A DNA stretch of 64,000 bases from Melampsora larici-populina 98AG31 (lineage: Eukaryota; Basidiomycota; Pucciniomycetes; Pucciniales; Melampsoraceae). A program made the position numbers and the translations under genes. This document shows, piece after piece, positions 14,402 through 62,390 of this stretch (position 1 is the stretch's first letter; every line of letters begins with the position of its first letter). Location: contig NW_006768781.1 in NCBI RefSeq assembly GCF_000204055.1, positions 145,392 through 209,391 of the forward strand. The letters are read 5' to 3'. Below the pieces are notes generated by a model. That model did not search any database, was not told where the DNA came from, and worked only from the letters and a program-made list of their open reading frames with translations.

Positions 14402-14617
14402 CACTGTGGGCAAATCGACGTCGCAAACATGTTTGCGACAGTTGGACGTTTCGCACGCGGTGAAACGTCCAGTTGACGTTTCACAGCCTGTCATGTGTGC
14501 GACAGGTTGAATTTTTTTGCAACAGGTCGCTCTCGCCTGCGTCAAGTTTTTTTTTATGCTACACTTTCCATTTGTTTGCGACACCTCGTCACCGCATGAG
14601 ACACCCCCGACCTCGGA
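14402..14617 (+). repeat. Left CACTA TIR with subterminal motifs
   Basis: This 216-nt repeat holds several copies of a gtcgcaaa/tttgcgac-type motif (cgcaaacatgtttgcgac, gtgcgacagg, tttgcgacacc) and the palindromic pair ggacgtttc/gaaacgtcc. Such subterminal repeats in CACTA elements are usually transposase-binding sites. It matches the complement of 51582-51797 with moderate divergence in the middle. Confidence 0.85.
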
Positions 14618-15182
14618 ATACACCACTCCAGATTTCCTTCCTTTTCGCTCAGCAGTCTACGCCTCTAGTACATACCTCCACTCGATCCGGACCACGGCCT
14701 CAGGGTCCATTCTACAACTTCGGATTTCCTCGACCTAGTGAACCGCCTGACAACCTACCAGTTTCCCTTTATGGATTGACTCGGCAGTCCCCGACGGTCT
14801 ACCCCAACCTACCGTGAGTTGGCAACCACTGAGCATAGCCTCAGGATCCTCCGTCGATACTTCGAACAAGCCTAATTGTACTGTTTTTTCTCATAGGCTG
14901 CCACGCATCCGTCATGAGCGAACCGCCTGACAAATCTACGTCGTTCCCCTTTTGGCTCGGCAATCTAACCCGATTTGTTGGTGAGTTGGCAACCCCTGAG
15001 CTCAGGTTTCTCGGTCGAATGTTTGAACAAGGCTAACCGTTTTTTTTTCTCTCATGTTGAGTATAAAAGGAGCTCGTAGCACGTCCCTCGGAAAGAAGCC
15101 TACTCCTCCCCTTTCCATCATACTCGGTTCATTAACCTTCGTCTCATCTTCATATCCTCACTTCCATCCATTTTTCGTAACT
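14618..15182. promoter_or_regulatory. Putative 5' region of cargo gene
   Basis: There is no clear gene. A TATA-like tataaaag lies at about 15062, some 120 bp before the first Met of the next gene. Two related strings (tgaaccgcctgacaa/cgaaccgcctgacaa at about 14738 and 14919, each followed by a tggc-tgag segment) form a diverged direct repeat of about 180 bp. Confidence 0.35.
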
Positions 15183-18100
15183 ATGCAATCTCAATACGAT
15201 GGTTCAGACGTCCCACCCACCGCCACTGGTCTTACACCCGAAGCTGTAGCGGGAATGATCCAACAGAGCTTGCAGGCTCAAGCAGCTCAATTCGAAAATG
15301 TTATCAGTGGTTTAAGAGCTCAACTTGAAGAGTTCAAGGATCTCAGCGGCCAATCCTCGCGTCAGAAGAAGTCTACGTCGAACACCACCCCGGACACTTC
15401 ATCCAACCGAGACCGTTTGAGAAGTTCATCCTCTCAAAACCCGTTTACGACTCCCTCACCTGCTGTCAAAGCACCGCGCAAATCAAAGACCCCGGTACCT
15501 TCTAACAAGCCTCCTGCCGCCTCTTCTGAACGCAAACGACATCCATTGCAAATGACATCAAGACAGATTCACAAAGATTACCAAACTACCAAGGTATGTG
15601 TTGAATTTCTGCACATGACTTTCATCAGCTCACGCTTGTCTTGCTTACGTTTGATGAATTACAGGACGCACTTTACTTCCACATCAAGGTCTTATGGGGC
15701 TTATTCAAGGCCAATGATGTCCCTCCCATCGTCGATCCCGAACTCTTGAAAGAATTCTACACACGATTTTCGTCCGCAGAAGAGGTTGAATCCGTGGTTG
15801 CAGACCCCTCAAGCGCTGATCTTGTTGCTCAAAACGACATCAGGACCCTGCGAGACTTGCGTACTGGCAATAATCGCACCAAGATGGGACGCGGAATGGC
15901 CAACCTCGACCAAATGTACATTTTGTTCATTCATGGAATCTTAGCTAAGGTGGGGATCCGTGTTTGGGCTCCTGACCTCCTCGATTCCCACGATTCCCTC
16001 TACAACTCTGCCTGTCGAATCACTGCCCTCACCACGTTTCGCCAGCTATTTGCATCGGGGGCCTTCAACTACATGAACGTTGTGGTGATCAATTTATGGG
16101 ATCAATTAAAAAATTCACAATTACCAGTTTACCAGTTTATTAGCAGGATTCAGCAGGAAAGAAAATTCGAAATGGAGGTTTTTGATCAATTGAAGCTCTT
16201 GTAGGCTTATGTATTGGTCATTAGGTCAACATTACATCATTTTTATTTCACATTATATATTAAGATCATTATAGTTTACTTACAAATTTATTACAAAAAG
16301 AAAGAAAGAAAAACATAAGAAAAATTCGAAATTATAGGTACAAAGGTTGGAAAATGGTTTTTAGGTTAGTAAAAATAAAGTTATGGGTATTATGAGGTTA
16401 GAATATGAAAGAAAAACATTATATTATACTATGACAATTTTAATCTTCAAGGTTGATAAGTAGAAACAGAAGTTATTAGGGAAAAGGCACTTTTTCGAAG
16501 TTGGTAAACAAGAGGTACACGTGTAGTTTGGTTGTGTAATAGTGGTAGTGATTGAATTTAAGGTTGCCAAGAGGATTTTTTGGGATTTTTAAGGTTATAG
16601 ATGATGATGTCATATTACAAGAGCAAGAAAAACAGAGTAGTAGCTGTGAAAAGTGAAGAAAATGGGTGAAATTCGTGGAAAATGGAGGTTTTCAGCTAAT
16701 TACATATGTCAAATGACGTCAGAATAGGTTGGTAGATGGCTCATTCAACGCAGAAGAGTGGATTACATAATGTACAAACTTTAAATCATTAGTAATGGAG
16801 GTGTGTGTAAAAAGTTATAAGGCAAATAAAGAATTGGTGTGAATCTCGAATTTACAGTCACAAGTCACATGTAACACTAAAAACTTTAACTTCACAACTC
16901 AATATCTTACTCATCACTCATCAGAAGTAGGTCATGTAGGTGTCAGAAATGATCAGTAACACGTGGGCTACAAGATGCACTTTAGTAATCAAAAATTGGA
17001 GCACATCTGAAAAAATTCGTAATCTCAAAAATTGGTTTTCAGCTAGTTTACAAGGAAAAAATCACCTGTATTCATCATAAGAAGTGCTGTACATCATATT
17101 ATTGCGTCATTTATCACTTTTAGCTGTGAAAATTACATCATTTATTAGTAACAAAATCATTACATTGCGTCATCATAGGGTTTTTAGGGAATTTTGGGCG
17201 GATTTGATTGGTTTTGAGGCTGTTGACCATTGTAAAAGTTCTAGTACATTGTTATATATACTTTGAGAGGGTTTTGGGACTGTTGTTCCCCTTTTTTTCT
17301 TTATCATTTACGCCATTATTATTTTGTTTATCATTATAAACTTATTTTAATAGTACCTGGTCACTTAAATACGCCCTTTATTACAAATTATAAAGAGAAA
17401 TTTACTTTAGTTTTATAGTCATAAAGACTTATTGGGAATAATATCAATCAGATATTGCTTATTTCTTTTAGTTATCAATTGGGAATAACACTATAGCAGT
17501 GTTGATAGTAATACAAAGTGTGCTTTTGAAGTTAAATTACGTGTGAAGATATATTTCTCTGGTGCCTTATCAGTACTCAATACAACAGAGCTCTTTCTGA
17601 TTGTGTTGTTTTAGAAGAGCAGTCCTTAGACAACTTCTACTAGTCATTTTATTAGTGGATTATCCTCTTCCAGCTCTGTATAACCCTTGTTGGGTTATAA
17701 GTTCTACAACGTCAACCCGAAATACGCCGAGTCGATGTCACTTTTTATCGCTACTTACAATCATTTTGTCCACTACTGGTCAGCTAGGAAGCTTCAGACC
17801 GAAATGAAAGAAGCCGGGAAAGTTCATGAGCTTTCTGTAAGGAAGAATATCCAGAAACATCGGGAACGGGTTAGTTTGCCAATGTACTCATAAATTCACA
17901 AACTCTTGAAGTGGTACTGACGTTTCATTGTGACTTAGACCATGCAGCATCGCCTGGCCTTCCTTGAAAAAGATACCAATCGTAAAAGGCCCAACCATCA
18001 ACGATATATCAAGATTTGTTCAGAAATCGCTGCCCATAGCGATGATGAAGAACATCCCGATGGAACTTACCGCGTTATCAAGACGTTACCGTACCGCTCG

Positions 18101-18655
18101 AAAAACACCTCGAAATTTTTCAGAAGACTCGACATAGAAATGAAAAAGGCCGATCAGATCTCTGGGAAAACTGTCAAGAGAGAGCCGCGCAGACTGCCGA
18201 GAGATCCCCTCCCATCTATATTCACCAGAGCTCCCAAAGAATTACCAATCGATTTTTACGATCCCCAGTGGTTTTCTCAACTCAATGCTGGTCAAAAGCG
18301 GCTCATTCCGAATGCTGGGCAAGTGGCTTTCCTCCCTGATGTGTCACAATCTCTTCTTCCTACTCCTCACCCCGACGAAAAACTTTCTGATTCTGCCTTC
18401 ACCGCCAAATACCTCAAGAGTCGCTCCGAACCATACAGAGAGGCTTTGGATGATCTGGAGGATGACGATGATGCTGACGATGACGAACACGACGAGGAAC
18501 TATCAAATGGACCTGGCGTCCCTCTCACCGCTGCCAACATGGAGACTTCTGATGAATCTGATTGCTACTCCGATGGAGATTTTGGGTCTTTATACGATTC
18601 TACCGATGATGAAGCAGCTCCTGCTGCTGATGATGATATCATCAAGGACTCGTAG
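15183..18655 (+). pseudogene. Acidic hypothetical cargo protein, split by a solo LTR
   Basis: I read exons 15183-15593, 15665-17869 (interrupted by 16081-17708) and 17939-18655; phases are consistent once the insert and one acgt are removed, about 566 aa. Visible features are a Gln/Ala-rich coiled-coil-like N-terminus, a Ser/Thr/Pro/Lys-rich linker, a globular middle (DALYFHIKVLWGLFK, TLRDLRTGNNRTKMGRGMAN, MYILFIHGILAKVGIRVWAP, FIATYNHFVHYWSA), the block FYDPQWFSQLNAGQKRLIPN, then VAFLPDVSQSLLP, and a long Asp/Glu-rich tail. I know no biochemical function. It resembles multicopy hypothetical families annotated in rust genomes, recalled and not searched. Its position inside CACTA termini suggests that such families may spread as transposon cargo. 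Confidence 0.65.
16081..17708 (+). mobile_element. Solo LTR (1628 bp) inside the cargo gene
   Basis: It begins tgtggtgatc and ends gttctaca, flanked by acgt at 16077-16080 and 17709-17712. The ends resemble the Gypsy LTR at 35992 (tgtggaaatc ... gttctaca), and both have a short hairpin just before the final octamer (here tataaccc/gggttata). It has no coding capacity and is AT-rich. A solo LTR left by LTR-LTR recombination is the simplest reading; a non-autonomous element is possible. Confidence 0.7.
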
Positions 18656-19237: not shown

Positions 19238-20839
19238 ATGTCTCACATTTCATGGGCGAATCTCCCTGAGCACATCCTAATCAATATATTCACCCAAATC
19301 CCCGGTCGTATTCCTAATCGCGGCCAGGGATGTCAACCAGTACACCTTACAAGGGTATGTAAGCATTGGTACCAAGCTGGTTTACGGATGTGAGTCACAT
19401 TTCAGGATACAAGCGCGTTCTCAGTTTTAGTGATATCATGCTTTGGTTAGATTATGGAAGCGGATTCGAGTTACACTGCGCCAAATTGCAAATTTACCGT
19501 GGAGTTTAGAAAATTGAGTAGACATAGAAAATTATAGAGAAGCTGGCAAGGGTCAGAAAAATATGAAAAAATAATGGGAGGGCCCTTTGATGCATTCCAA
19601 TTGTCTGGCATATTTTTTCATATTTCTAAAACCACAATGCATATAACACTACACAAAATATAATATCTCCTGGGCAGAAAATATAAAAACCAACAAACAG
19701 TGATATTGAGCAGTCTTGGAGAGAGACAAAAATACACATATTGTTCCTATGGCTGAGACCTTGGATTTGAGTATTTTTTTGTATTTTTAGTGTGCAGATT
19801 GTTGACTGTACTAACAAAAAACCTCCCAGTTTCTCAGATTACAACCTGTAACACAGATTGGAATTTGGCCAAGGGGTGACAAGGGGATATCTGGAATTCT
19901 ATATCCCTCATATCTTTTGCAATTCTGGGTCAAAACACTTGATAGTTATCTGATTAGGAAGCCATGAAATGCATTTGAATGTTATGTTAATGCATCAAAT
20001 CTGTAGCTCCGCTACAAAAAAACCTATTTGTCTTCGAAACAATTTCCTATATATCCACATAGATATTCTTTGGGATTAGATGCAGGTTTTTTGTCTCAAT
20101 GAAAGATATAGTCACAGAGTTTGGCTTTCCAATGAGCAAAAAATCAAGTGGTCTGACCAAGAATTGACAAAGATATAAGGGATTGTTGAATTCAAATTAT
20201 GCCCTCCAATGTCTGTTACAGGTTGTAATCTAACAATCCTGGAGGTTTTTTGTTAGTACAATCAACAATTCTCACACAAAAAATACAAAAAAATACTCAA
20301 ATCCAAGGTCTCAGCCATAGGAAAAATATGCATATTTTTGTGTATTTTTGTCTCTCTCCAAGACTGCTCAATATCACTGTTTGTTGGTTTTTATATTTTC
20401 TGCCCAGGAGATATTATATTTTGTGTAGTGTTATATGCATTGTGGTTTTAGAAATATGAAAAAATATGCCAGACAATCAGAATGCATCAAAGGGCCCTCC
20501 CATTATTTGTTCATATTTTTCTGACCCTTGCCAGCTTCTCTATAATTTTCTATGTCTACTCAATTTTCTAAACTCCACGGTAAATTTGCAATTTGGCGTA
20601 GTGTTAGTGGGGTAGTAGCGTTAATCAAACTTAATATTATTGCTTTGGCTCGGCCGGATCTGGCTGAATTGATCAACGAGCTCTACATATATGATACAAA
20701 CTTCTTCAGCGACATTTGCGAAACACATTGGGCTACCATATCTCCTGAAGATAAGGGATTTGCAGTTGATTTCGTTTGGCCATCTTTTTGTCGCCTCGAT
20801 TCCTGGTTGCCAAACGGTTCCACCTATCTAAAACGCTAA
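19238..20839 (+). pseudogene. Small F-box protein, split by a palindromic element
   Basis: Exons 19238-19389 and 19451-20839, with 19474-20603 inserted in the second, give about 135 aa once the insert and one tta are removed. The N-terminus has a classic F-box: LPEHILINIFTQIPGR ... PVHLTRVCKHWYQAGLR, then WKRIRV. F-box domains dock on Skp1 in SCF ubiquitin ligases; a short C-terminus with no leucine-rich or WD repeats leaves the substrate unknown. A paralogous fragment lies at 35510-35861 (ISPEDKGFAVDF here, LTPEETGFAADF there). It sits between two other plus-strand cargo genes of the CACTA element. With the insert in place the frame stops early, so the copy is probably inactive. Confidence 0.75.
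19474..20603. mobile_element. 1130-bp palindromic element, second subfamily
   Basis: It begins cactgcgccaaattgcaaat and ends atttggcgtagtg. Its arms are long imperfect inverted repeats (for example gagaagctggcaagggtcag on the left and its complement on the right), flanked by tta at 19471-19473 and 20604-20606. Internal segments are related to the 816-bp element (gtactaacaa, acctgtaaca, gaatttggcc, tcttttgcaattctg). It is non-coding. Confidence 0.88.
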
Positions 20840-20865
20840 CTTAGATTCTGTTCTTCCTTCATTCC

Positions 20866-21499: not shown

Positions 21500-22542
21500 A
21501 TGCCACCTTTTCGCAATTGGAAGAATCCAACTCCAGATGATCTTGCCTTCTTGAACACCTTGGACGCGCGCGCCAAGTCTGAAATTTACCCACTACCAAT
21601 CACCGCTCGGGCTCATCCATGTGTTAGAGCTGGTATGGAACAGTGTTTTGTGTGTGGAAAATTCGGTCACCGTAAACCCTGCCTTAGCAAGAAAAAGTAT
21701 GGGGCACCTTATTTTCCCTTTTGGCGGAGAACGAACAACGGCCGGTCGTATAGCATCAACAAGCTCAGATTGACTGATGAACAACTCGCTGTGGCGAGCC
21801 TTTCGGAGGCTGGTACGTTCTCATCTCCTGACGCGGAGAAACTTCATCTGATCAGCGAGTGGTGTGTTTTAGTCGAAGTGGAAGAAGACGAGGTAGATAT
21901 TATGCAATTGTCGTCCGACGACATTGCCCTCCTGGAAGCGGCGGAAGAAAAGGGTAAGTCTTCTTCTTGTTACGCGCATGGATAAAAAGGAGAATAACTA
22001 ACATTCTGGTTTGCTGGGTATCTAGCTTCGTTAAAAGCGAGCAGTCAAATCCAAGCGTCAGTAGTCTCGGGAGACGAATCAGATGAAATTGATGAGCTTG
22101 ATGAGCCCAGTAAGTACTTGGAATTCCATGTTCACTCTCGAAAGCCGCGAAACTAACTTCCACCAAACGTGGTAGCCGGGGAAGCAATGGTCCTAGCCGC
22201 GAAACCACGCTCCACGGTCACTGGCAAACAAGTCACTCACAAGAAATTACGACGCTCTGGAGGGGTGTGCTACCATTGCTTTGGCCGCGTTGGGAGTGGT
22301 CGTATCTCCGGAACTTATGGCCTCCGATTCCCACGTGAGTATCTTCAAGTCTCTTTTCGCAACGGATCACAGATGTTCACTGATCTATACTTTTCCCTCC
22401 ATTCCAGCTGGCCAACGCGTGCGTGCGCGCGTTATTTCTGTTCGAAATGGCTCAGAAATCGGTACAGCTCACAAGATACGCTGGACCCCAGTTTAACGAT
22501 GTTTCCAATACGTGGATGGGAAAGATGACTTATTTGACGTGA
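21500..22542 (+). CDS. CCHC-type zinc-knuckle-like hypothetical protein
   Basis: The first exon (21500-21953) encodes a protein with one Cys-rich knuckle, CFVCGKFGHRKPCLSKKK, near residues 48-65. Exon 2 (22026-22109) is acidic and Ser-rich. A downstream frame (about 22197-22333, then from 22407) reads as protein (CATIALAALGVVVSPELMAS, ending in KMTYLT before the stop at 22540-22542), but its phase does not match exon 2 by one base. Either a splice site is missed or the copy carries a small indel. A Met at 21416 would add a hydrophobic leader; I prefer 21500. I do not recognise the family. It is the third plus-strand cargo gene of the CACTA element. Confidence 0.45.
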
Positions 22543-27433: not shown

Positions 27434-28031
27434 TGTTACAACTGTCAGAGCAGGGATGATTTAAGTTCAGAACAGATCTAATGAACTACAATCAAAATCC
27501 CACGAATGAGCTACTCACCTGTCAGAGCAGGGATGATTTAAGTTCAGAACAGATCTAATGAACTACAATCAAAATCCCACGAATGAGCTACTCACCTTTC
27601 ACCCAAGAAAGTAAAAGAATATCTTGGATCAGTTTTATTTCCATCACAATAAAAGAAAACATTAAGATATGAAAATGAAGAAATTTGAATGAGAAGCATA
27701 CCTGTCAGAGCAGGGATGATTTAAGTTCAGAACAGATCTAATGAACTACAATCAAAATCCCACGAATGAGCTACTCACCTTTCACCCAAGAAAGTAAAAG
27801 AATATCTTGGATGAAGAGGGAGGCTTTCTTCGTTGCTCTTCGAGGTTTACATGATATAGTTGAGAATACAAACTAGGTTAATAATGATGAGAATCTTAAC
27901 AAACAACATACATATGGTCTTATGCGCTACACATGAATATTAGTAAATGAGATATGAAATAATAGCAACATTTGAGTTTCAGACTTGTGAAATGTAATAT
28001 GTAATACATAAATGAAACGATAACTTTAACA
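27434..28031 (-). repeat. 3' LTR of Copia 1
   Basis: It contains three copies of a roughly 79-bp unit beginning ctgtcagagcagggatgatt, two in tandem and a third about 180 bp further on, followed by ctttcacccaagaaagtaaa, which itself occurs twice. The same structure is in the other LTR. Repeated units in U3 often carry promoter elements. Confidence 0.9.
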
Positions 28032-28043
28032 TCCCCCCTATTT
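28032..28043 (-). other. Polypurine tract of Copia 1
   Basis: On the minus strand aaatagggggga abuts the LTR and is the expected plus-strand DNA primer site. Confidence 0.75.
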
Positions 28044-28054
28044 CAAGAACATTT

Positions 28055-37728: not shown

Positions 37729-37730
37729 TC

Positions 37731-37748
37731 TGGTGACTCCACTGGGGC
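37731..37748 (+). other. Primer-binding site of Gypsy
   Basis: tggtgactccactggggc starts two bases after the LTR and begins with tgg, complementary to a tRNA 3' CCA end. I cannot name the tRNA by eye. Confidence 0.6.
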
Positions 37749-37916
37749 AATTCGAAACAACCTCTTCCGGCTTCGCAGGTGCTCATCCGTCAAACATTGT
37801 TTCTCGACATCTCAACCGGTCAACTTTTTTCTCAATTCATCAAGTCATCAAATTCAATTCAATAATTATATCTCGTCACTACATCTTCGCAATTCATAAA
37901 TTTCTCAAACCTCAAC

Positions 37917-38387: not shown

Positions 38388-41142
38388 AGTGGATATCAAG
38401 CCGAGGAAGAAGAGCAAGAAGGGGAAGAAGAAAGTGGTTAAAATTGAACCTCAAGATTCAGAATTACGGTTCAGCCGGGGTGATGATGTCAAGAAGTTCT
38501 TACGGGACTTTGAGGTTGCGGCACAGGTTGATGGAGCAAGCGGTGTAGACATGGCAATGCAAGTCTGTGCATTTGTGAATGGGAAGGATTTAAAGGAGGA
38601 AATTAAGGAACTTAAGGGTTGGGGAGAAGGAGAATGGGATTGGAAGTTGTTGAAGACGGAAATGAAGGACCGGTATGCGTCAATTCGAGAGGCGCCTAAG
38701 TACACGGTGGAGGATTTGAAGGAGCTAGCCTTGGATTCTGAAAGTAATGGGGGTATTGATTCAAAGTTGGAATTTGAAGGTTTCCGGCATAAATTTGATA
38801 GTATCTTAGTCTATCTCAAGAAGTACGATTACATTGACTCCGAGGACGAGATATGTAACTACTATTACAGAGCATTCTTGGATAGTATGCAGAAGAAGAT
38901 CAAGGAGAAGTTAAGGAGTGATGGGGATTTGAGAAAGACAAGGGATGGAAGGCACCGGCTGCCAGGGTGGAGAGTACTCAAGAAGACAGTGCATACGGTG
39001 TTACAAGAGGAGGTAGAATTGGTATTCGAAGAGCTAAGAGGAAAGAAAGAGGTGGAGACTAAGAGGGATGAGGAACTCAAGGAGAAGGTGGTACAGAAAG
39101 ATAAGGAGAGAAGAGGATTGAAGATGGAAGGTTTGAACAAGAAGATTGGAGGCAAGGTGTCAGACGAGGCTACCATCAGCGAGTTGGTTCGTCAGTTTGC
39201 GGCATGGAGTGGGCAAGGGATGAGTCGACCTATGGCTGTCAACCCAAACAGTCAAGTCCACGGCGTGTTCCGGAATAGTTCGTATTCTGGACAACAAAAC
39301 AACTTTGGTCCGCCGGCTCAAAACAGAGGAGTACCCGAACCTCAGTTTAATTCTTCAACTTATTTCCGGGGAGGTCAGCAAGGAGGACAGTTCAACAACA
39401 ATGCTTCTGGACCTAACAATCAAACTGGCGGGCGCTATGTGAACTTGGGAATGAATAGAGGACGAGGAGGGTATGGCGGAAATAGGGGTGGATATGGTGG
39501 GAATCAAGGTAGAGGAGGTTACAACTCGAGTTCCCAATGGAACACTTCAGCTGGCCAGTACCAAGGCAACAATGGTAACCAGCAACCATCCAGCGGACCA
39601 GCAGGACCACCTCCCAACAATGGGCCTCCTAGAGGAGAGTTTCAACAGTCAAACTTTAGAGATGGTCCTCTGATGTGTTACTACTGTGCAAGAGAAGGAC
39701 ATGGCCATAACAGGTGCCCAGACAAGCAACGGGACATAAATGATGGATATGTTACCGAGCATAACAATACCTATATACTGTCTAATGGTGCGGTAATCCG
39801 GTGGGACAGTAGTAGGCCTATTAGAGCGGTAGTTGCGGATTATTCCTTGCAAGTGGAGCAAGCAAAGATTGCAGCGAAGGGGGCACCAAGCCAAAGTGCA
39901 CCTCCGGCGGAAACAGCTAAGGCTGTAGTAGTACCTGAGAAGACTGTTGTTACCGGGATATTGACTAAAGATGAGTCTGGTGGATCTCAAAGTCAGGAAC
40001 TTAGGGCAAGCTGTGGCATATTGGAAGAATGGAAGGCTCCTGGAATTACGAGTAAAGGATTTAAGGCTGCAATGGCGGGAGCGGGGACTAAGGTTTATGA
40101 TGTAGAAGTGAAAAGATGTAGAGGTAGAGCGGAACCGGCGGAGGCGCCAAAGAAGAAGAAGGTCACAATGTCAAAGGACAACGAGGATCAACAAGATGAA
40201 CTTATGGAGTTGGCTGAAGATGATGATAGTAGTGAAGATATCCCGTTGGCGGAATTAAAAGAAAGGAAGAGGCCAACGGTAGTAGCACCAAAGATTCAGA
40301 AGAAGGATATAGTCAAGGGAAGATTTGAAAGACCAGTGGAGAAAGGTTATGAGGGGGTGATGGATAATGTGGTGCCAAAAATAATGAAGACCAAGATAGA
40401 GGCAGAGGTTGGGGAACTGTGTGCTATCTCACCAGCGTTGGCGGAGCACGTCAAGAAGCAGGTTTCTAAGCGGCGGGTTGTTATTCCTAGGATCATCAAG
40501 CCATTAAGAGCAGCTACTGGTGGATTAGACGAAGAAGAGTCTAGTTCAGAGAGTGAAGATGATGGGGAGGATGTACTCTACTCTTGTCCTTTAGGATATT
40601 TGGACATTATGTTTGGCGGAAAGAAGAAAAGGGTTAAGGCCTTGGTTGATTCTGGATCCCAAATCAACATCCTTCCGGAATCAGTAGCGGAGGAGTTAGG
40701 GCTAACAGGGTTGGTGTCCATTAGATCAGGTGTTAGAGGTATTGGAGGGCAAAGGACAGAGTTAGTTGGGATTGGGGAGGCTATAGAAGTGGTAGTAGGG
40801 ACTAGAGTGCAGGGTGTGGCTCACTTTTGGATTGCCAAGGAGAGTAAATGTCCAATCTTATTGGGACGGCCCTTCCTTATGGACTTTAGAGCGGGAATGG
40901 AGTTTGGGAAAGCAGTCGGGGAAAGGTTGACCTTGAAGGATGAACGAGGTATATGGACAAGGTTTACTATTTGCCAGCCAGATGAAGGGGACTGGGAAAG
41001 AGAGTTGGATCTTGGGGAGAAAAGAACTACTATGGTGGAGGTCAATTTGGCTCGGCTGCGGCAAGAAGTTCAAGAGGAGGATTCAGGCTCCGTCCCAAGT
41101 TATGTGGAAGAGGTGTCTGGTGAAGATAAGTCTTTTTTGTAG
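38350..41142 (+). CDS. Gypsy Gag-protease ORF
   Basis: This long frame encodes a capsid-like region (LRFSRGDDVKKFLRDFEVAA, GWGEGEWDWKLLKTEMKDRY), a Gly/Asn/Gln-rich stretch, a CCHC knuckle (CYYCAREGHGHNRC) near residue 440, a long acidic/basic linker and a retroviral-type aspartic protease near residues 755-860 (VKALVDSGSQINILPESVA, ILLGRPFLMDFRAGMEF). It has no ATG near its start; the listed start is a GTG, and the true entry is probably by +1 shift from the leader ORF at about 38376. It ends in TAG at 41140-41142, directly after a run of six T. Confidence 0.85.
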   Translation: MRIVQVRGRRVSEVDIKPRKKSKKGKKKVVKIEPQDSELRFSRGDDVKKFLRDFEVAAQVDGASGVDMAMQVCAFVNGKDLKEEIKELKGWGEGEWDWKLLKTEMKDRYASIREAPKYTVEDLKELALDSESNGGIDSKLEFEGFRHKFDSILVYLKKYDYIDSEDEICNYYYRAFLDSMQKKIKEKLRSDGDLRKTRDGRHRLPGWRVLKKTVHTVLQEEVELVFEELRGKKEVETKRDEELKEKVVQKDKERRGLKMEGLNKKIGGKVSDEATISELVRQFAAWSGQGMSRPMAVNPNSQVHGVFRNSSYSGQQNNFGPPAQNRGVPEPQFNSSTYFRGGQQGGQFNNNASGPNNQTGGRYVNLGMNRGRGGYGGNRGGYGGNQGRGGYNSSSQWNTSAGQYQGNNGNQQPSSGPAGPPPNNGPPRGEFQQSNFRDGPLMCYYCAREGHGHNRCPDKQRDINDGYVTEHNNTYILSNGAVIRWDSSRPIRAVVADYSLQVEQAKIAAKGAPSQSAPPAETAKAVVVPEKTVVTGILTKDESGGSQSQELRASCGILEEWKAPGITSKGFKAAMAGAGTKVYDVEVKRCRGRAEPAEAPKKKKVTMSKDNEDQQDELMELAEDDDSSEDIPLAELKERKRPTVVAPKIQKKDIVKGRFERPVEKGYEGVMDNVVPKIMKTKIEAEVGELCAISPALAEHVKKQVSKRRVVIPRIIKPLRAATGGLDEEESSSESEDDGEDVLYSCPLGYLDIMFGGKKKRVKALVDSGSQINILPESVAEELGLTGLVSIRSGVRGIGGQRTELVGIGEAIEVVVGTRVQGVAHFWIAKESKCPILLGRPFLMDFRAGMEFGKAVGERLTLKDERGIWTRFTICQPDEGDWERELDLGEKRTTMVEVNLARLRQEVQEEDSGSVPSYVEEVSGEDKSFL
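41130..41142 (+). promoter_or_regulatory. Candidate -1 ribosomal frameshift site
   Basis: In the Gag-protease frame the codons are tct ttt ttg tag, giving the heptamer t ttt ttg (41133-41139) of the X-XXY-YYZ type immediately before the stop. A -1 shift enters the Pol frame. I did not confirm a downstream pseudoknot. Confidence 0.65.
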
Positions 41143-42745
41143 AGGATGTTGGTGAAGACATGGGCGTTCAGTATATAGCAAATCCAAGTTACCTTGGGCG
41201 TCCATCACCAACTATTGAAGAAACGGGAACTTGGTTGTGTATGAATAATAATTTCAATTCTCAGTCTCATTTTCAGTCTCAAGATTCTCCTCAAGTTTCT
41301 TATATTTCATCATCTTTGGTATCAATGGAGGAAGAGCAAGTGGGAGAAGTTTTGGAGGATAGTATATATTTTGGCTCAGAGTTTAGTTCTTCTTTTAGTT
41401 TTATTGAATCCTCTTTATCTCAGTCTCAATTCTCAAGTCGTGGTGTACAATTAGAAGATTATGGCGGAAGTATGCAGGAGTTAGAAAATGGAATCAGAGG
41501 GGGTTTATTGGAGGAAGAAGAATGGGAGACGGTGAAGGCGCTAAATGAAGGTTTCGACATTAGGCAGCAAGCAGAGGTTTGCGAGAGATGGAGGAGGGGA
41601 GAGTTATTATGTTTTGCGGCGAAGTACAAGTCAGTGGCGAAGAAGGTCCGGCCGGTCAATGCAGCGATGCCACAAAGTCTCAACCCACCCTTACAAAGGC
41701 CACCGATGTCAAGGGATCCATATGAAACACCTTTGTCCAAGAATCCCCCGGACTTTGCAGAGACAAAGAAGACAACATTGGAGCGGTTGAAGATGTGTAA
41801 TTTTGGGCCTCAAGATTGGCTAAGTGATGAGGAGATGAAGTTATTATTACATGTAGTAGTATTAAGGGAAGGGGCAATTGCTTATTGTGAAGAAGAAAGG
41901 GGTGTTTTGAAGCACTCTTATGGATTTCCTTATGCCATTCCAGTGGTGGACCATCAACCTTGGCAGAAGAAGCCAATTCCAATTCCGGCGGCTATCAAAC
42001 CAGAATACATTGAATTAATCAGACAACGGCTAAGGACGGGATTGTATGAACAGTCAACTTCAAGCTATTCAAGTCCAGTATTTTGTGTGAAGAAACAGGA
42101 TGGCAAATTAAGAGTGGTTCATGATTTACAAGAATTGAATAAGGTCACCATCAAGGATGCGGGAATGCCTCCGGCACCTGAAGAGTTTGTGGAATCATTT
42201 GCAGGAAGAGCATGTTATGGCTTAGGTGATATTATGGGAGGATATGATGAAAGAGAGTTGGCAGATTTTTCAAGACCCTTAACAACTTTTGAAACACCAT
42301 TGGGAAGATTTCAACGTACTAGATTACCTCAAGGTGCAACAAATTCAGTAGCAGTATATCAAGCTCAGATGATGTGGATTCTCCAAGATGAAATTCCACA
42401 GAACGTAGGTATCTTCATTGATGACGGCGGAATCAAAGGTCCTGATTCTACCTACGGCGATGCGGTGCTGGAAGAAAATCCCGGCATTAGGCGTTTCATA
42501 TGGGAATATGCGGTTACTTTAGAAAGAGTTTTGTTTAGGATTGAAGAGGCGGGACTTACAGTTTCAGGGAAGAAGTTTGCAGTTTGTGTGCCAGCATTGG
42601 AAATTGTGGGACATGTGGTCTGTAAGGAGGGAAGAACAATATCAAAGAAGAAGAAGAACAAGATTCAGAATTGGCCGGTTCCCAGAAACACTACAGAGGT
42701 TTTGGGATTTCTCGGAATGTGCATATATGTGAGGATGTTTATTAA

Positions 42746-42928
42746 CACTGCGAAGATAATGTATTTCTCCAAGGTGAAAAATGATTACTTATAATGCACA
42801 AAATGATTAATAATGCAGAATTAATGCAGAAAAATGCAGAATTAATGCAGACTTAATGCACTTTTAATCATTTTGTACATTAAATGTAATCATTTTTCAC
42901 CTCGGAGAAATACATTATCTTCGCAGTG
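42746..42928. mobile_element. 183-bp MITE, CACTG ends
   Basis: It begins cactgcgaagataatgtatt and ends with its near-perfect complement, with about 42-bp inverted ends and an interior made of repeated taatgcaga/aaatgcag units. It is flanked by taa (42743-42745 and 42929-42931). The arms are almost identical, so it is young. Confidence 0.93.
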
Positions 42929-44894
42929 TAAGGACTTCTCTAAGATTGCAGCACCTATGAGAAGGTTGACTAGGAAAGATGTGGAATGGGATTGGGATGA
43001 AGAGTGTCAGGAAGCTTTGGATAAGCTGAAACAAATTATTGGGGAAGATATTATGTTGAAGGGATTGGAATATGGGGAAGGCGCAGGCAAAATTATCTTG
43101 GCGGTAGACTCAAGTCAAATGGCAGCAGGAGGTGTATTGATGCAAGAAGATAAGCAAGGAAAGGCAAGGCCAGTGTTCTACGAATCATTGGTGTTTTCAC
43201 CGGTAGAAGCAAGATATTCTCAACCCAAACTAGAACTATGTGGCGTTGCAAGAATACTTAAGAAATTTCAAAGCAAATTGTGGGGACAACACTTTGAGCT
43301 TCAGGTAGACGCAAAGTCTTTGGTAGAAATGATCAACAGGCCAACTTTACCAAATGCACCGATGACTAGATGGGTGGCATTTATTCAATTATTTTCCTTT
43401 GATATTGTTCATAAGTCAGGAAAGAGTTTTGGGATGCCAGATGGACTCTCACGAAGACCAGTCGGGGAAGATTCAACGTCCGAAGGAGAAGATTTTGATG
43501 AAGAAAAGGATGATATTACTCCACATGAGGGTTTCCCAGTTTCTACTATTGATAATGATAATGAAATGATACCTTGGACTCAAGAAGGTTTATGGGCGAC
43601 ACTTGAAGAATATCTAAAAGGTTTTCATAGACCTCCAAATTGTTCCGATGAAGATTTTCAATGGATACAACATAGGTCAAAGACTTTCTTCATGGAGCGG
43701 GGAAGATTAAAGAAGAGGGGAATACCTTGCGGAAGATTAGTAGTGTCAAGAAAAGAAGGTCAAGAGATAGTGTTACAAAGATTACATGAAGAGATGGGAC
43801 ATAGAGGTGTAGAAGAAACTTATAGAAGATGCTTAGTTAGGTTTTGGTGGCCGGAGATGAAGGAAGACGTGAGAAGATGGGTGATGTCTTGTGAAGCGTG
43901 TCAAAGAAGGAGTCCTAATACTCAAAAGGAAAGAGGACATGCTACGGGGGAGGCTACGGTGTTTGGAAGGGTCAGTCTAGATGCTGTGCATATTAAGACT
44001 AGTAAATATAAGTACTTGATTGTGGCAAGAGATGATCTTTCAGGATGGGTTGAAGCAAAACCTTTACAAAAGTTAACTTCAAAGGCGGTGGCGGATTTTA
44101 TCTTGAAAGAGTGGATTTGGAGGTATGGGGCGGTGAAGTGCTTTACAGTAGATGGAGGGCCAGAATTTAAGGGAGAATTAAGAGAGGCAGTGAGTTTATC
44201 AGGATCAAAGTTGGGGGAGGCTACTGCTTATTGGCCGCAAGGTGAGGGAATGGTAGAGCGGGGACACCAACCGTTGAAGAATACCTTGGTGAAAATGTGT
44301 GGTGAAGATGGAAGGAAGTGGGCGGAGAAATTACCTTTAGTGTTATTTTCAGACAGGATTTCCACTAAGAGGACAACTGGTTTCTCACCTTATGAAGTTC
44401 TTTTCAATCAGAAAGCGATCTTACCAGTGGACGTCGAGGCGGGGACTTTTCTTGGAGTGGATTGGGATAAAGTTACTACCAGAGAGGAGTTGTTAATGGC
44501 AAGAGTGGAGCAGTTGGAACAGAGGGATGAAATGTTAAAGAAGGCTTATGACAGGATGATGAAGGCAAGGACGGAGGGTATTATATATTGGGATAAGAAG
44601 AATTCACATAGGTTAAGAGGTGCTTTGGAGGCTGGGGATTTAGTCTTGGTGTATAACAAAAGTTTGGAATCTCAATGGGGGAAACTATTTAAGGATAGGT
44701 GGAATGGGCCTTATAGGGTGAAGGAACAATATCCGGGAGGATCTTATATTTTGGAAGAATTGGACGGGACAGTGTTAAGCAGGCGAGTGGCAGCAGAACA
44801 TATCAAGAGATTTTTTCCGAGAGGGGTTTCAGAGGTTTCAGTGCAGGAAGATTTTCAAGAGGAGGAATCAGCAAGTGCGGGAAGTTCAGGATAA

Positions 44895-46631
44895 GATAAA
44901 TAAAAATAATTCTCTTCAAAGTTTTTTCTCTTTTGTGTTGGTTTTGTGTGTATAAGTTGGGGTGTTTTCTTTTGTCTTTGTTTCTCTTTAAAGGTGGACT
45001 GTATTTGTATGGGATTGGTGAATTTAGTGTTAAAGCGGGCGTAGTTCGGTGGATTTTCTTATTATCACTTTCTCTTTATCTTTGGCGGTGTGGGATAGGA
45101 TAGTTGAGGATGGTGGATGTTGGCAGGATGGATAGTTATCAAAATTACAACAAAAGTAGTGGGTACGGGGCGGGCATAACAATCATCAAACCAAAATTCA
45201 ACATTCAATCAATCAAGCTGAATTTGGAATACTACTTAAAATCAATTTTCTTTCTTTCTTTCTTCTCTTTTTTTTCATATAATTCAAATTAAATCAATCA
45301 ATAGCAGGGGGCACGGGATGGGTACAAGTTACAAATTTAAATAAATCAACTTTAACAATTAAAACAAAATGGATTACTGCTATAAACAATTTTCACAATT
45401 TTCTCTTTGTTTCTTTAGTTATGGTCATTTTAAATCAAGTTTCTCTTTATCAGTTTCTTTTATTTTTTCCGGTGGTGTTTGGTATAGGTTAACGAGGGTG
45501 GAGGATAGATGGCGGGTACGGAAAGTCAAAATGAATCAGAATTAAATTACATACAATCAAATCAAATTACAAGAAGTAAAATAAAATGAATCAATCAAAT
45601 ATCAATTATTCAAATAAGTTACATTCAATATTACATCAAAATAAATTCACGTAGAACCTTTTTAAATCACAACACTTCTACTATCAAAATGGTTTGACGG
45701 GGTGCGGGTTATGTTTCTCTTTTTCAATTTTTTCTTTTCTACGGGGACAGGATTGGTAGTCGAGGATGGTGGATTAGCTGGCTGGTATTAGGATATAGTG
45801 TTACAAATTTTATTAAATCAAAGTTATTAAATCAAAACAAATCAAATTACATCAAACTTAAGACTGTAGTAGGGGGTTTGGGGAGAGGCTGCAAATTATC
45901 AAGAACAAAACAATCAAAGCGGCAACAAAATTACAATAAAATTACATATAAAATGGTTACTACTACAGCAAATCTTTTCTTTATTTTTTTACGGGGATTG
46001 GAGTGTTGAGGGTGTTGGATTGGTAGCAGGACGGATAGCATTACAACAACATTTATGATTACTATTACGGAAGATTTTGTGTTTTACGAGTTAACGACTT
46101 AATATTTCATTTACACGGAGTGTGGATCTGGCGGAGCAACACAACTTTTGGATTACAATTATAATGTTACATTTTGAAAGATACATAGATACATATATTT
46201 CTTGCGAATTAGTACAAGGTAGATACAGGACGGAACCTGGTGCATGTGAATTTATTGTCAAGGCCTAGAATAGAGGTTACTTGGAGTTTGTTAAGATTAT
46301 TGTTTGGATTACGGGAATAAGAAAAATATTATCAAAATATCTCAAAAGTTACGGTTATGAATTTTACAAGGAAGTTGATGAAGTTTTACGGATAAGTGCA
46401 ATGGGAACAATGTTATATTTTAGTTAGAGATAAATAAAATTAGAACTTACAGTGGTGGTTTTTCATTTAAGTTGGGGAGGTGTATCACAATTGCGGCAAT
46501 TTTTTATCTCAGTTGGGGGAGGTGGTCATCAATTATTTTTTCAAGGCGCACATAGTTTTCACAAATTTGCATACATATTCATTTCAAGAATCAGCGGCAG
46601 CGCTGAGGACAGCGTAGAAGTTGGGGGAGGA
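44895..46631 (+). repeat. Non-coding 3' tract of Gypsy with diverged repeats
   Basis: No ORF is supported in this 1.7 kb. A pyrimidine-rich stretch followed by a G-rich box (ggat-g-ttgaggatggtggat-ggc-gg-a) recurs about four times (near 45085, 45475, 45740 and 45995) with AT-rich aaatcaaatcaa spacers. The final purine run gggggagga at 46623-46631 is the polypurine tract. The role of the repeats is unknown. Confidence 0.6.
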
Positions 46632-48368
46632 TGTGGAAATCAAATCCAACAAAGATATACCACACATCTGTCATCTCATCTTTTCACTTGGAAATCAAAA
46701 CCTTTATCAAAATCTTTTATTTAACTCACTCATTGTCATGCTAAAAGCAAAGCACATATCTACTACATATACAAGTAAAAAGGAAACTCATCAAGATCTC
46801 ACTATGGCTCCTTAGTTTTTTTTGGTCAATATTATTATTAACAAATTTCATTGCATTAAGTCATCTTTATCTTCTTACAACAAATATACAACAAACATAA
46901 TTAAATCAACAAAAGAGAAATGCTTGAAAACACAAGCCACAATCTAACTTACAAGAAATCAAAAAAAAGCAATTTCAAATTTGAAAAGCCTACATATTAT
47001 CTCTTACCATTCATTGATATTGATCTAGATTAAGAAACATATAACAATGAACTGAAATCGATTTGAATGAGTTGATTGAACAATCTGGAACATTCTCAAA
47101 CAGCCAAGAGACAAGTCAATTAAATCAATAAATAAAACCAGCAATTAGTATTATGTAATTATGTCAAGCAGTTGGAAGGAGAAAGAAAAATGAATTAGAA
47201 CTTATTAGTTGTTTTTTGGTCAGAGGTTGAATCACAAGATCAATTGAAAAGAGATCAAATTGAAAAAAAATCGAAATCGAAATTGATGATGCAGTTGAAT
47301 GGAAGGAGTTAGAGTCAGTTAGCATGAGAAAAAAGGGAATGAACAAGGAGAAGAAAAGAAAAGAAGAAAGGAACATACCTGGAAAGAAAAAAAAAAAAGT
47401 CGAAATCGAAAATGATAAGTAGTTGAAGGAAGGAGTTAGTGTGGGAAAGAAGGGAGTGATAACCTAGATAGAAGGAAAGAAGAGACAAATGATGTCATCA
47501 GTAGTAGAAAAGAAAGATAGAATGAGAAAAGAAAGCAGAAGGAAACAAACATACCATGAGAAAGAGGAAAGAATCGAGTTGAGATAAGATCCTTAGTGTG
47601 GGAATAAGCCAAGAGATCGGTCGGAATCGGTCGGAGCGAAGAGAAGGAAAGTCTTGAGGCTAAGTTGTGGTTTGGGTAGGTGGAAAGGTATAAAAGGGGG
47701 GTGTTGTTGGTGTTGAAGGAGCTCGTGGCATTGTGTAGAGGATCGAAGCAAGTCGATCGAAGTGTTTTTTTTTTGTGTTTTGATCGATAGTGTAGTGTGT
47801 TGGTGTTCAACTCGATTATCCTATTCATAAAGGATAAAGAAGAAAGAGCGAGTTTTTTTAGATTAGTTAGCTATTAGTTTAAAAGTCAAGTAAAAGGAAG
47901 AAAAGAAAGACTTACATTGAAGAATTGATTCGTTGTGTGTTAAGGAAGTTGTTGAAGTTGAAGTCGAGTGGAAGGAGGGTTGTGTTATTTTAATTTTAAT
48001 TTTTTTATTTTGTGTTCTATCTACTCGAGTACAGGGCCAGATCAGGGCCAAGGGGAAAGGACTGAACCTGGGTTCAATTCCAGGCCAAGTTGTGTTTTTT
48101 TTAAATTGTTTTTTTAAATTTTTGTGTGTGGCTCAGTTGTGGGCGGGATAAATAGGGTTTAGAAAGTGTGAATATCCTTCTTTGGGGTAAATTAGGTTTA
48201 CGGGAAACTTGTAACGGCGGAAGTGTTAAGAATTGTCCTACGTAATTTTTTCGTAGAATTTCTTAGGTTGAAGGCAGCTTTGCAGCACCGTAGTTTCATC
48301 CGTTCTTCTAGGCGGTGATTCTTACCTTCTCCGGCTCAGCCTACGCTACACTGCGTAGGAGTTCTACA
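46632..48368 (+). repeat. 3' LTR of Gypsy
   Basis: It is the same length as the 5' LTR. Differences seen are T at 48183, 48234 and 48281 (C in the 5' LTR), one extra A in an A-run and one fewer T in a T-run. It is followed by the acgt duplication. Confidence 0.92.
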
Positions 48369-48508: not shown

Positions 48509-51414
48509 CTATTCTTCAAGCACGGACTTGTGATCACACGGGCGTAAGATAATACCTCCTTCTGGTATACCCCAAGTGTCATTTGGTAAAAGCCGGTAAG
48601 CAGCCACGGCAGTGACTTTCGTGGGTGATACAAATACGGAGGAGTCGAGGACTTGACCTACAACAGTTTTTAGTAGAAAAAGTTTGTAGCGGAATAGATG
48701 GGAAGGGGATGAGGAATCTTTGGGATACATATTTTTAATAGGGTTGATAAGAAACTGGACTTGTTTCACGTTGACAGGGTTTCTAAATTGATAAATTTGG
48801 CAAACGATTCCGTAACACGACTTACCCCCTTCTTTATACTTGATGCAGTTGTTTGGTTTGAGCACAGACACCGATACATACTGGGATACTTTCCAAGAAG
48901 GTTGAGGTGTTGCGTAAGAATGTAGTACTCGAGCCATTGGAGGATGGGGAAGTTCCCGATGGTGACGAGCGTCTGGCATGGTCACCCTAATTAACGCCAG
49001 TAGCGCCTCGTAATCGTTGTCTTTCAGCTCGATCTCATTACGCTTTGTTTTGAAGATTTCCACGCCTTCCTCGAGACTTTCAGTGTCGACGGAGATTGGA
49101 TGATCCGCCATCAGTCTTTGGAGCTGACCGAAGCGACGGGAAATTGTTTTGTCCATTTCCGCTGCGAGTACAGAGATATAATGTTTCAGTATCAGATATA
49201 TCTACAACAATCACGATCAATTCAATATTGAGAAACTTACCCAGGTGAGTGTTTGTCTGAATGTTTTGTAGATGACCCACTAATCTTTCGCCAGAAAATT
49301 CAGCTACTTGACTCAGAGGCCCCCAGCGCCTCATCATATCTGGGATATGGAGCGTGTAGTGGTGATTCGGGACGACATTTAGATTACCAAAGATGACCTT
49401 TGAAGTTTTGTGATATCGACGGTAAAAAACTCAAACTTTTCTGAATCGGTTTCTGAAACTGCCTTGGCGCAAACGATATTTGTGCACTGACATAAATCGG
49501 ATATGTTCAATAAAATTTTCCCTCGGTTTGAATCCACGGGGATGTTTTCAACATCAGTCACGAAAACTTCCAGTACGATCAGAGGGATGACATAAGCAAA
49601 CAAGCTGTGCCATTGGGCCGCTTTCAGTTTACCGTGTTTTGATTTGCCAAGATTTGAAGGAAGTCGAGTAATGCCTGAGGGTAAAACAGCATCTTGCATT
49701 CGGTTTCGAAAAAACTTGATGTTGTCCTCAGTAAAAAGGCCACCGTTCCATCCTGACTCCAGCTCCTCGTCATCCACCTCATCCTCTTCGTCAGATTCAT
49801 CCTCAGGGTCTCCGAAAACGTTTCCGCCGCCCTCCTCGTACAAGACCCGCTTCGAAGGGTTCTCAGGACCTCTCGCCGACATTCGACGTTTGTTGCTGCG
49901 AGTTTTCTCTTCTTTTGAGGGTATTACAAAACCCCAACGAAAACGGAAATGCTGGTGGAGCACCCCCTCGAACCAATTGTGCATGATTCCCAGAGGAAGA
50001 TCGAGCACCGGGTCGCGATACGATAGCCGATTCATTTCAGACCACCGGATTCCTGTTTCTTTGAGGATGTCTTCTTTCGCCGCGAGTGTCTTCTTAAGGC
50101 GGGAGTTGTTTGATGTCCGGATGACCTCAGACTTCGTTCTCAACTTGCAGATCTTCATGTCTTGAATCTCATTCAAATTCGCCCAGCACCAGGAGCAAAA
50201 GAAAGTAGCAGAATGAGAAGCATAGCCGGCAACTTTATGCATACCGACTATGTCACCTAACAAGGACAGTAATTTAATGCGCACTAATCGGCCGTTGGGA
50301 TACTGATGGGTGCAGATTCGAATTCCGGATTCAAGCTCAATGAGTTCATCCACCGTCCCTTCCAAGATATGGTTTATAGTCGACACGTTGGGAGAATTGG
50401 GACCGGGGGTTATGCCAGCAAGGCAAGTGTTTCCAATTAGATTGCGTCTTTGAGGGCTGAGGTTTAGGCAGTTGTAAGCGAGGACCCCAAGGGACTGTTG
50501 TTTTCCGGCTTGACGGTTCCCGCGGGGGTTGAACCAATCGATGAACAAAGAAAAAACGAGGTTCAGAGGGGGTGCTTCATTCAAAACTTCGGATCTTCCA
50601 GTATCCACCCAGCGGAGGCCAGAGGAAGCAGGTGATTGTTGAATGTCGATCGTCTCCGGTTCCATCATTTCGGATAGTTCCTGCTTCCAGTTTTCGTTGT
50701 CCAGTTCAATTGATGATTTGCTCAAAAACCATCGAAGCCATGACACCAATGGTTGTGTGACATATACACTTCGAGGGACTCCGATTTGAAATGGCGATAA
50801 TTGTAGAGACTGTCTTGGTGTGGTTCGAATCTTCCCCTGGTCTCGGATGCCACAATACATAGTCTTCAGAATGAATAGGTCTTCCCCACAGACTCGAGCT
50901 TTGGGAGATTTGAGATAAGTACAGGTCCAAGGTGCGTTCGAGATTTCATACAAGGTGAAGCAGATAGGACAGCAGACGTGTTCGTTAAGTTGAGGAGTGA
51001 CTGATAGACGCTTGATGATCGTTCGGACGTCTTTAGGTACATGATGTTGAAGGTTCTGCAGGTCATGGCCATTATCCCGCTCCAATCTATCCTCGTCACG
51101 ACATAGAGAGAGAATTCGAAGGATGAATTCATGGGCTTTTCAACAGTCGTTTCGGCTGAGCCCGCAGTATATGTGAAGCCATCCAAGAAAGAGAGACACT
51201 AGCATGACAGCTGGAGGAAAGCAGTCAAAAGATAATCGACTTGAAGTCAGCGGGCTGGTTCAGTGAGCAAGGTAGGGTGATCTTACCGGTGAGGGAGCCT
51301 TCATTTGACCAAGGTTTGGGTGGTTCTTTGATGTTCAGTTGCTCTTCAACGGCCTTTGCAAGTTGATCGGTATCATCTGAGGAGTGGACATCCTCATCTT
51401 CGGATGGAATATCT
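48509..51414 (-). pseudogene. Tnp2-family CACTA transposase, one frameshift
   Basis: This is the transposase expected to bind the 216-nt ends and cut the element. Exons run from about 51414 leftward; the main exon (51141-49379) has a Cys pair region (CCPICFTLYEIS), the catalytic-region signature FSLFIDWFNPRGNRQAGKQQ followed by SLGVLAYNCLNL and GITPGPNSPN, then ATFFCSWCW and a CLEANED-type LDLPLGIMHNWFEGVLHQHF. The C-terminal block (PNHHYTLHIPDMM, WGPLSQVAEFSGERLVGHLQ) is in another frame; the switch maps to the homopolymer at 49424-49429, where one more base would join them. A last exon (48509-49156) gives a small globular tail. One of five short Asp/Glu clusters lies at GDPEDESDEEDEVDDEE. 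The homopolymer shift could be real decay or an assembly error. Confidence 0.85.
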
Positions 51415-51581
51415 CGTCAATGGTGTTGCAGCTGTGTTTGACGGGTCGTCCATTGGCCGCGAAGACGCTTTCCCGTTGGGTCAATGCATGTCCGAGTGAT
51501 GCAAGTGGAGCAAGTACAGAGGGGCATGATCGATGATTATGATGTTAGTGATCGGAAGGGCGAGAGGTGGAAATCGAGGAA

Positions 51582-51797
51582 TCCGAGTTTGGGGGTGTCG
51601 CATGCGGTGACGAGGTGTCGCAAACAAATGGAAGGTGTAGCATAAAAAAAAACTTGACGCAGCCGAGAGTGACCTGTCGCAAATGACTGCCGCCTGTCGC
51701 ACGCAGTCTTTGGCTGCGACATGTACAGGTGACGTTTCACCCGTGTGAAACGTCCAACTGTCGCAAACATGTTTGCGACGTCGATTTGCCCACAGTG
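51582..51797 (-). repeat. Right CACTA TIR
   Basis: This is the 216-nt partner of 14402-14617, ending atttgcccacagtg before the tga duplication. The Tnp2 gene's 5' region overlaps or abuts it, so the repeat may also act as the transposase promoter. Between 51415 and 51581 no further exon is certain. Confidence 0.85.

Positions 51798-60942: not shown

Positions 60943-62390
<1,448 letters not shown>

What the first reader, a model, noticed from the sequence alone, without database searches (positions are those of the whole stretch)
14402..51797. A 37-kb composite CACTA element carrying host-like cargo genes
Equal 216-nt inverted ends (cactgtgggcaaatcgacgt) and matching tga duplications lie 37.4 kb apart, with a Tnp2 transposase near one end. 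Between them are an acidic hypothetical protein gene, an F-box gene and its decayed paralogue, and a CCHC-type gene, all on the plus strand. After subtracting nested elements the unit is roughly 10 kb with about four genes. A cargo-bearing CACTA that moves F-box and lineage-specific genes would explain how such families multiply in these genomes.
Basis: partly seen in the sequence, partly recalled or inferred. Interest (0 to 1): 0.9.

Follow-up and report, generated by a model that had tools for sequence, protein, structure and literature searches.

The report
CACTA transposons carrying swappable F-box gene
A 37-kb stretch of a fungal genome is one old cut-and-paste transposon swollen by other insertions; its family repeatedly carries a small F-box gene, probably a protein-destruction adaptor, that seems to be traded between transposon lineages, so it looks like a tool of the transposons rather than a stolen host gene.

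Summary
14402-51797 is one CACTA element: 216-bp inverted ends (87% identical), matching TGA duplications, and no other copy of these ends found in the 98.3-Mb genome. It is a dead copy holding at least five nested insertions. The 'host-like cargo' reading is only partly right. The acidic gene is the transposon's own second gene: 29 of 29 gene1/Tnp2 pairs I could form are convergent. The F-box gene is not host cargo either. All 16 F-box loci of this family that I found lie beside CACTA genes or CACTA-like DNA; none is a stand-alone host gene. It sits between gene1 and Tnp2 in 10 of 29 pairs, in either orientation. Two sister copies (97.5-98.2% identical) have moved whole, F-box included, to different sites with their own 3-bp duplications. 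F-box genes look exchanged between distant CACTA lineages: one pair differs at 10/42 four-fold sites against 86/128 in the transposase. They are under purifying selection. Best reading: a facultative third gene, swapped between elements, that probably redirects the host SCF ubiquitin ligase to the transposon's benefit (function inferred). Nearest precedent: the TET/JBP gene traded among rust DNA transposons.

The parts
14399..14401 (.). left target-site duplication TGA
14402..14617 (+). left terminal inverted repeat, CACTGTGGGCAAATCGACGT...
15183..18655 (+). gene1, the CACTA family's own second gene (acidic C-terminus), interrupted here by an LTR-like insert; exon edges approximate
   Evidence: homologues convergent with Tnp2 in 29 of 29 pairs formed
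16092..17707 (.). about 1.6-kb LTR-like insert in gene1 (TG..CA ends, ACGT on both sides); edges inferred by eye
19240..19391 (+). F-box gene A, exon 1 (Pfam F-box-like, 25.6 bits against a cut-off of 24.3)
19474..20603 (.). CACTA-type MITE, CACTGCGCC..GGCGTAGTG, about 400-bp inverted ends, TTA duplications, lying in exon 2 of F-box A
20604..20839 (+). F-box gene A, remainder of exon 2 (exon 2 begins at about 19451, before the MITE)
21500..21985 (+). CCHC-type small gene, candidate cargo (Pfam zinc knuckle only weak, E 0.17, below cut-off); also 3' of gene1 in the sister element on C174
23500..35530 (+). nested element with an RT-like ORF (25811-27481, named by eye) and a tyrosine recombinase-like ORF (34188-35237; Pfam Phage_integrase E 0.006, below cut-off); edges not resolved
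27434..33552 (-). nested Copia-type LTR element (type named by eye), LTRs 99.8% identical, ACTTC duplications
35535..35864 (+). F-box gene B, 5'-truncated, 75% DNA identity to the F-box of the C9 element
35992..48368 (+). nested Gypsy-type LTR element (type named by eye; aspartyl protease over Pfam cut-off), LTRs 99.7% identical, ACGT duplications
48509..51208 (-). Tnp2 transposase, two main ORF blocks, with an in-frame stop near its start
51582..51797 (-). right terminal inverted repeat
51798..51800 (.). right target-site duplication TGA

Best explanation
The span is one CACTA/EnSpm-type element, since expanded to 37.4 kb by at least five nested inserts (about 10 kb without them) and now dead. 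The family core is two convergent genes, gene1 and Tnp2, between CAC..GTG ends (shown). Some members carry a third gene, a small F-box protein, in the space between the 3' ends of the core genes, in either orientation (shown). The F-box gene moves in two ways. It moves with its element by ordinary transposition (shown for the C5/C55 sisters). It also passes as a roughly 730-bp block, gene plus upstream region, from one CACTA lineage to another, by recombination or template switching during repair (exchange well supported for one pair; mechanism inferred). Its protein most likely docks on Skp1 and directs the SCF ubiquitin ligase against a factor that limits the element, such as a silencing protein, or tunes transposase level (inferred).
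For: Single pair of ends with matching duplications. 29 of 29 gene1/Tnp2 pairs convergent; 10 of 29 hold F-boxes between the two genes. Both ends found in 8 of 13 relatives whose outer flank I fetched; 7 of these 8 have matching 3-bp duplications, each a different triplet. C5 and C55 elements, 97.5-98.2% identical in the long pieces, match only from end to end, with different duplications (ACA, TAG) and no similarity in the fetched flanks. F-box census: 16 of 16 loci beside gene1 or Tnp2, one of them only beside Tnp2-like DNA. C10a/C72 exchange: 10/42 four-fold differences in the F-box against 86/128 in Tnp2 (P=1.6e-6) and 35/49 in gene1 (P=7.6e-6); a shared 773-column block with about 250 bp upstream of the gene. 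F-box dN/dS 0.22, 0.17, 0.07 and 0.29 in four of the less saturated, undecayed pairs, like Tnp2 (0.25) and gene1 (0.29) in the C10/C66 pair.
Against: With host clades collapsed, an AU test on nine F-boxes does not reject descent with the host elements (p=0.33). Two ancient F-box paralogues with losses could therefore explain part of the pattern, and several other cross-lineage pairs are marginal or negative. 19 of 29 pairs have no F-box, so it is not essential. The F-box alignment is 137 residues. The tail model has mean pLDDT 59, so no fold supports a substrate role. The function is not tested at all.
Confidence: 0.8

Rival explanations
1. The F-box is an ancestral third gene of the CACTA family, inherited vertically as two or more paralogues, flipped by local inversion and lost in most copies; no exchange between lineages.
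For: Present in at least five main clades of the transposase tree. AU test on nine F-boxes does not reject host clades, p=0.33. Three elements carry two F-boxes, and the two in one element belong to different F-box lineages (clades C10a+C10b+C66a+C66b and winA+winB+C9 rejected, p<0.001), as old paralogues would.
Against: C10a/C72 F-boxes are far younger at four-fold sites than their backbones. Three vertical control pairs show F-box four-fold divergence no clearly lower than Tnp2's (0.62 v 0.64, 0.60 v 0.58, 0.38 v 0.23; the first two are near saturation). The C10a block replaces what its sister C66 has in that slot.
Confidence: 0.2
2. Passenger cargo: repeated accidental capture of host F-box genes, of no use to the transposon.
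For: CACTA elements are known to capture gene pieces (recalled). 14 of 18 F-box-like domain hits of the genome lie outside the CACTA units, so donors could exist.
Against: No stand-alone host relative at E<=1e-3 with four queries; one hit at E 0.045 on C15 was not followed. Purifying selection similar to the transposase. Same slot in all 10 pairs that hold an F-box.
Confidence: 0.1
3. The two ends belong to two short separate elements that happen to face each other.
For: The ends are only 87% identical.
Against: Only two copies found in the genome, inverted, with matching TGA, and with gene1 and Tnp2 in the family order between them.
Confidence: 0.02

Closest known systems
EnSpm/CACTA transposons of rust fungi (CAC..GTG ends, 3-bp duplications), PMC12730594, passages seen
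   Same: Same end motif and duplication length; transposase with weak Plavaka similarity (one of three relatives scanned, E 9e-4, below cut-off; window copy none).
   Different: Those described there carry a TET/JBP dioxygenase gene; here an F-box gene. The main text of that paper has 0 occurrences of F-box.
TET/JBP genes traded between DNA transposon superfamilies in Puccinia and other fungi, PMC12730594, passages seen
   Same: An accessory gene passes between transposon lineages; that paper reports no signature sequence at the ends of the shared block.
   Different: Different protein; exchange seen here within one superfamily; Tet_JBP has only 2 sub-cut-off hits in this genome.
VANC anti-silencing proteins of Arabidopsis VANDAL transposons (PMC10398659, PMC5735166, starts of abstracts in a search listing)
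   Same: A transposon-borne accessory protein that would counter host control.
   Different: VANCs are sequence-specific anti-silencing proteins; here the proposed route is protein destruction, and it is untested.
F-box genes that captured a Tc1/Mariner HTH domain in Caenorhabditis (PMC12062965, abstract seen)
   Same: F-box genes and transposon sequence combined.
   Different: There a host F-box gene took a transposon domain; here transposons carry the F-box gene.

Membership tests
CACTA/EnSpm superfamily | CAC..GTG terminal inverted repeats | tested here: met
   window and 8 of 13 relatives
CACTA/EnSpm superfamily | 3-bp target-site duplication | tested here: met
   window TGA/TGA; 7 of 8 relatives with both ends found; C34:655k fails
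CACTA/EnSpm superfamily | DDE transposase of the CMC type | tested here: inconclusive
   Pfam: none for the window copy; weak Plavaka below cut-off in 1 of 3 relatives. A CxxC motif is visible in the sequence (CSWC); its meaning is taken from PMC12730594.
CACTA/EnSpm superfamily | moves as a unit | tested here: met
   C5 and C55 copies, 97.5-98.2% identical end to end, different sites; not shown for the window copy
F-box proteins | F-box domain at a curated cut-off | tested here: met
   window exon 1: 25.6 bits against 24.3; C9, C24, C55 and C10 exons over cut-off; the other CACTA F-boxes were not listed there
F-box proteins | binding to Skp1 / SCF assembly | not testable with these tools
   none
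TET/JBP-bearing transposons | Tet_JBP domain inside the element | tested here: not met
   2 sub-cut-off hits genome-wide, on C4 and C6, where none of the 29 gene1/Tnp2 pairs lies
host-gene cargo (transduplication) | a related host gene outside the transposons | tested here: not met
   F-box: none of 16 loci found. CCHC-type gene: relatives exist, the closest in repeat loci

The most novel reading that the evidence does not exclude
CACTA transposons of this fungus carry a dedicated F-box gene that hijacks the host SCF ubiquitin ligase to remove a silencing or defence factor, and this gene circulates between transposon lineages as an exchangeable counter-defence module, as TET/JBP genes do.
Probability: 0.35. 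Interest if true: 0.85.

Novelty: new variant of a known kind. Interest (0 to 1): 0.6.

Why it matters
Transposon-borne accessory genes that pass between element lineages are rare windows on the fight between transposons and genome defence. A transposon-only F-box gene would point to protein destruction as a weapon in that fight, next to demethylation (TET/JBP) and VANC-type anti-silencing. It also warns that part of a fungal genome's F-box gene count may belong to transposons.

Tried and rejected
Two separate short elements: rejected (single pair of ends). F-box A as gene plus decayed neighbour: rejected, one gene split by a MITE; the decayed paralogue is F-box B. Fixed-topology AU tests of the F-box against the gene1 tree reject strongly but are unfair, because the gene1 tree resolves C16/C24/C55 weakly; I use the collapsed test. 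Its first run printed no table and was rerun. TET/JBP as the third gene: not found. Public protein search with the F-box: 1 candidate, none at E<=1e-3. Fold search not run, since the model is poor (mean pLDDT 59). First joining of loci with a wrong strand assumption was redone. Paper searches showed no F-box gene carried by a fungal CACTA, judged from titles, starts of abstracts and the F-box passages of PMC6416283 and PMC4905642 (neither relevant); the two rust genome papers listed were not read, and the library is open-access papers only.

Full report
What is there. The ends at 14402-14617 and 51582-51797 are inverted copies, 192/220 identities, flanked by TGA on both sides. A search of the whole 98.3-Mb genome finds these two copies and no others (the tool's counts are lower bounds).

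Inside the ends, left to right: gene1 (15183-18655, +), interrupted by an LTR-like insert of about 1.6 kb that sits in ACGT (edges inferred by eye); F-box gene A (exon 1 19240-19391; exon 2 from about 19451 to 20839), split by a 1130-bp CACTA-type MITE with TTA duplications; a CCHC-type gene (21500-21985; Pfam zinc knuckle E 0.17, below cut-off); a nested element with RT-like and tyrosine recombinase-like ORFs whose edges I could not fix, itself holding a Copia-type element with 99.8% identical LTRs; F-box gene B (about 35535-35864, without most of its first exon); a Gypsy-type element with 99.7% identical LTRs; and Tnp2 on the minus strand with an in-frame stop near its start. The window copy is a dead relic.

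Gene1 is not cargo. I took 43 gene1 loci Tnp2 loci. From the 96 Tnp2 segments I left out the more distant ones (37% identity or less), second segments of loci already taken, and one 53% fragment on C32. From the 150 segments I left out those that match only the LTR-like insert. In 29 of 29 gene1/Tnp2 pairs within 32 kb the two genes converge; 14 gene1 loci and 5 Tnp2 loci have no partner in these lists. Gene1 is the family's own second gene, comparable in place to TnpA of plant CACTA elements (a comparison, not a test).

The family is real and has moved. Of 13 relatives whose outer flank I fetched, both ends were found in 8: C9 7164 bp, C24 7855, C34:145k 6096, C5 8139, C55 7024, C78 6256, C10 8831, C34:655k 6093 or 6462. 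Seven of the 8 have matching 3-bp duplications; C34:655k does not. Ends were not resolved in C110, C66:132k, C40, C72 and C16, although C16 and C66:132k show inverted repeats (96% and 91%). The C5 and C55 elements match in pieces of 97.5 and 98.2% identity that stop at the element ends, apart from an internal insert and a 969-base stretch of C5 that I did not fetch; their duplications differ and the fetched flanks share nothing. Both hold an F-box gene, so an F-box-bearing CACTA has transposed as a unit.

The F-box gene is a transposon gene here. One search gave 88 segments: 15 are F-box matches, and the other 73 start at residue 1 of the query, which is the MITE end (a few of them run on past it). 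Two further queries added no locus; the full-length query added one weak exon-1 match on C2 (E 2e-4) and one at E 0.045 on C15 that I did not count or follow. That makes 16 loci. Thirteen lie in 10 of the 29 pairs. C7 and C2 lie beside gene1, with no Tnp2 seen in the lists. A decayed one at C9:774k lies beside DNA that is 73% identical to the stretch of the C46 element that holds the 3' part of its Tnp2, although the window's Tnp2 gives no significant protein match there. None is a stand-alone host gene. Pfam F-box-like has 18 hits genome-wide, 4 of them in CACTA units and 14 elsewhere; host F-box genes exist, but my F-box queries did not find them. In the 10 pairs the F-box lies between gene1 and Tnp2, in the direction of gene1 in some and opposite in others; C10 has one of each. 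In C24 against C55 the F-box block is inverted and more alike (74%) than the backbone on either side (65 and 62%).

Exchange between lineages. Gene1 and Tnp2 trees agree in their main clades; the F-box tree does not follow them, though many F-box branches have low support. The strongest case is C10a against C72: F-box four-fold sites differ at 10/42, Tnp2 at 86/128 (P=1.6e-6), gene1 at 35/49 (P=7.6e-6). I picked it after seeing all 91 F-box pairs; multiplying the first P by 91 leaves about 1.4e-4. The shared block is 773 columns long, includes about 250 bp upstream of the gene and ends just past the stop; on its left it begins at a 27-bp stretch identical to C10's sister C66, which lies in a short repeat, and C66 similarity resumes 28 positions beyond its right end. 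Of the 10 cross-lineage or window comparisons, the two for C10a/C72 are far the strongest, five others are below 0.05 uncorrected, and three are not (C16-C7 0.087, C9-winB v Tnp2 0.13, winA-C7 1.0). Three control pairs show no clearly lower F-box rate, but two of them are near saturation. Against exchange: with host clades collapsed, nine F-boxes do not reject descent with the host (p=0.33), nor do the single clades C72+C40 or C16+C24+C55+C5. Forcing C10a+C10b+C66a+C66b, or winA+winB+C9, into clades is rejected (p<0.001), which shows at least two F-box lineages but fits old paralogues too. So at least one recent exchange is well supported; how common it is remains open.

Selection. dN/dS is 0.22 (C10a/C72), 0.17 (C10b/C66b), 0.07 (C24/C55, near saturation) and 0.29 (C10b/C9), against 0.25 for Tnp2 and 0.29 for gene1 in C10/C66. 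C9/winB gives 0.44, in line with the decay of winB. The C55/C5 pair is too close to judge (1.30 on very few changes).

Function. F-box domains are expected to bind Skp1 (established for the domain, recalled). The tail is about 85 residues and its model is poor. The counter-defence role is an inference by analogy with transposon-borne TET/JBP (PMC12730594, passages), TnpA reactivation of methylated promoters (PMC1636069, passages) and VANC (starts of abstracts in a listing). Regulation of transposase level is an equally simple alternative.

The CCHC-type gene. 65 segments match it. By coordinates only the window's own and the one on C174 lie beside gene1; among the joined loci a further match lies just outside the C24 element. 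On C174 it lies 3' of gene1, and C174 is the sister of the window copy in the gene1 tree. Its three closest relatives sit in loci that share three near-identical ORFs in the same order, so they are a repeat family of another kind. It may be true cargo, taken once.

Limits. I infer a basidiomycete, perhaps a rust, from the element type; no call shows it. Names of Tnp2 and of the nested retroelements rest partly on reading by eye.

Noticed in passing
window 35992-48368 and 16092-17707: The Gypsy-type element and the LTR-like insert in gene1 both sit in ACGT duplications, hinting at a palindromic target preference.
   Followed up: no
window 28055-32848: The nested Copia-type element has a single 1597-aa open frame and 99.8% identical LTRs, so it is a recent insertion.
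   Followed up: no
C6:741801 and C6:742570; C4:2489659 and C4:2506454: The two weak Tet_JBP hits of the genome lie 0.6 kb and 17 kb from relatives of the CCHC-type gene; that gene may belong to another transposon type.
   Followed up: no
window 19474-20603: The MITE in F-box A has many related ends across the genome (73 segments); a CACTA-type MITE family, TTA duplication in this copy.
   Followed up: partly
C34:655670-662302 (L039, L008, L066): One element end stands twice, 369 bp apart, and the flanking triplets do not match, in a relative.
   Followed up: no
window 61362-61910: Isocitrate/isopropylmalate dehydrogenase exon, an ordinary host gene.
   Followed up: no
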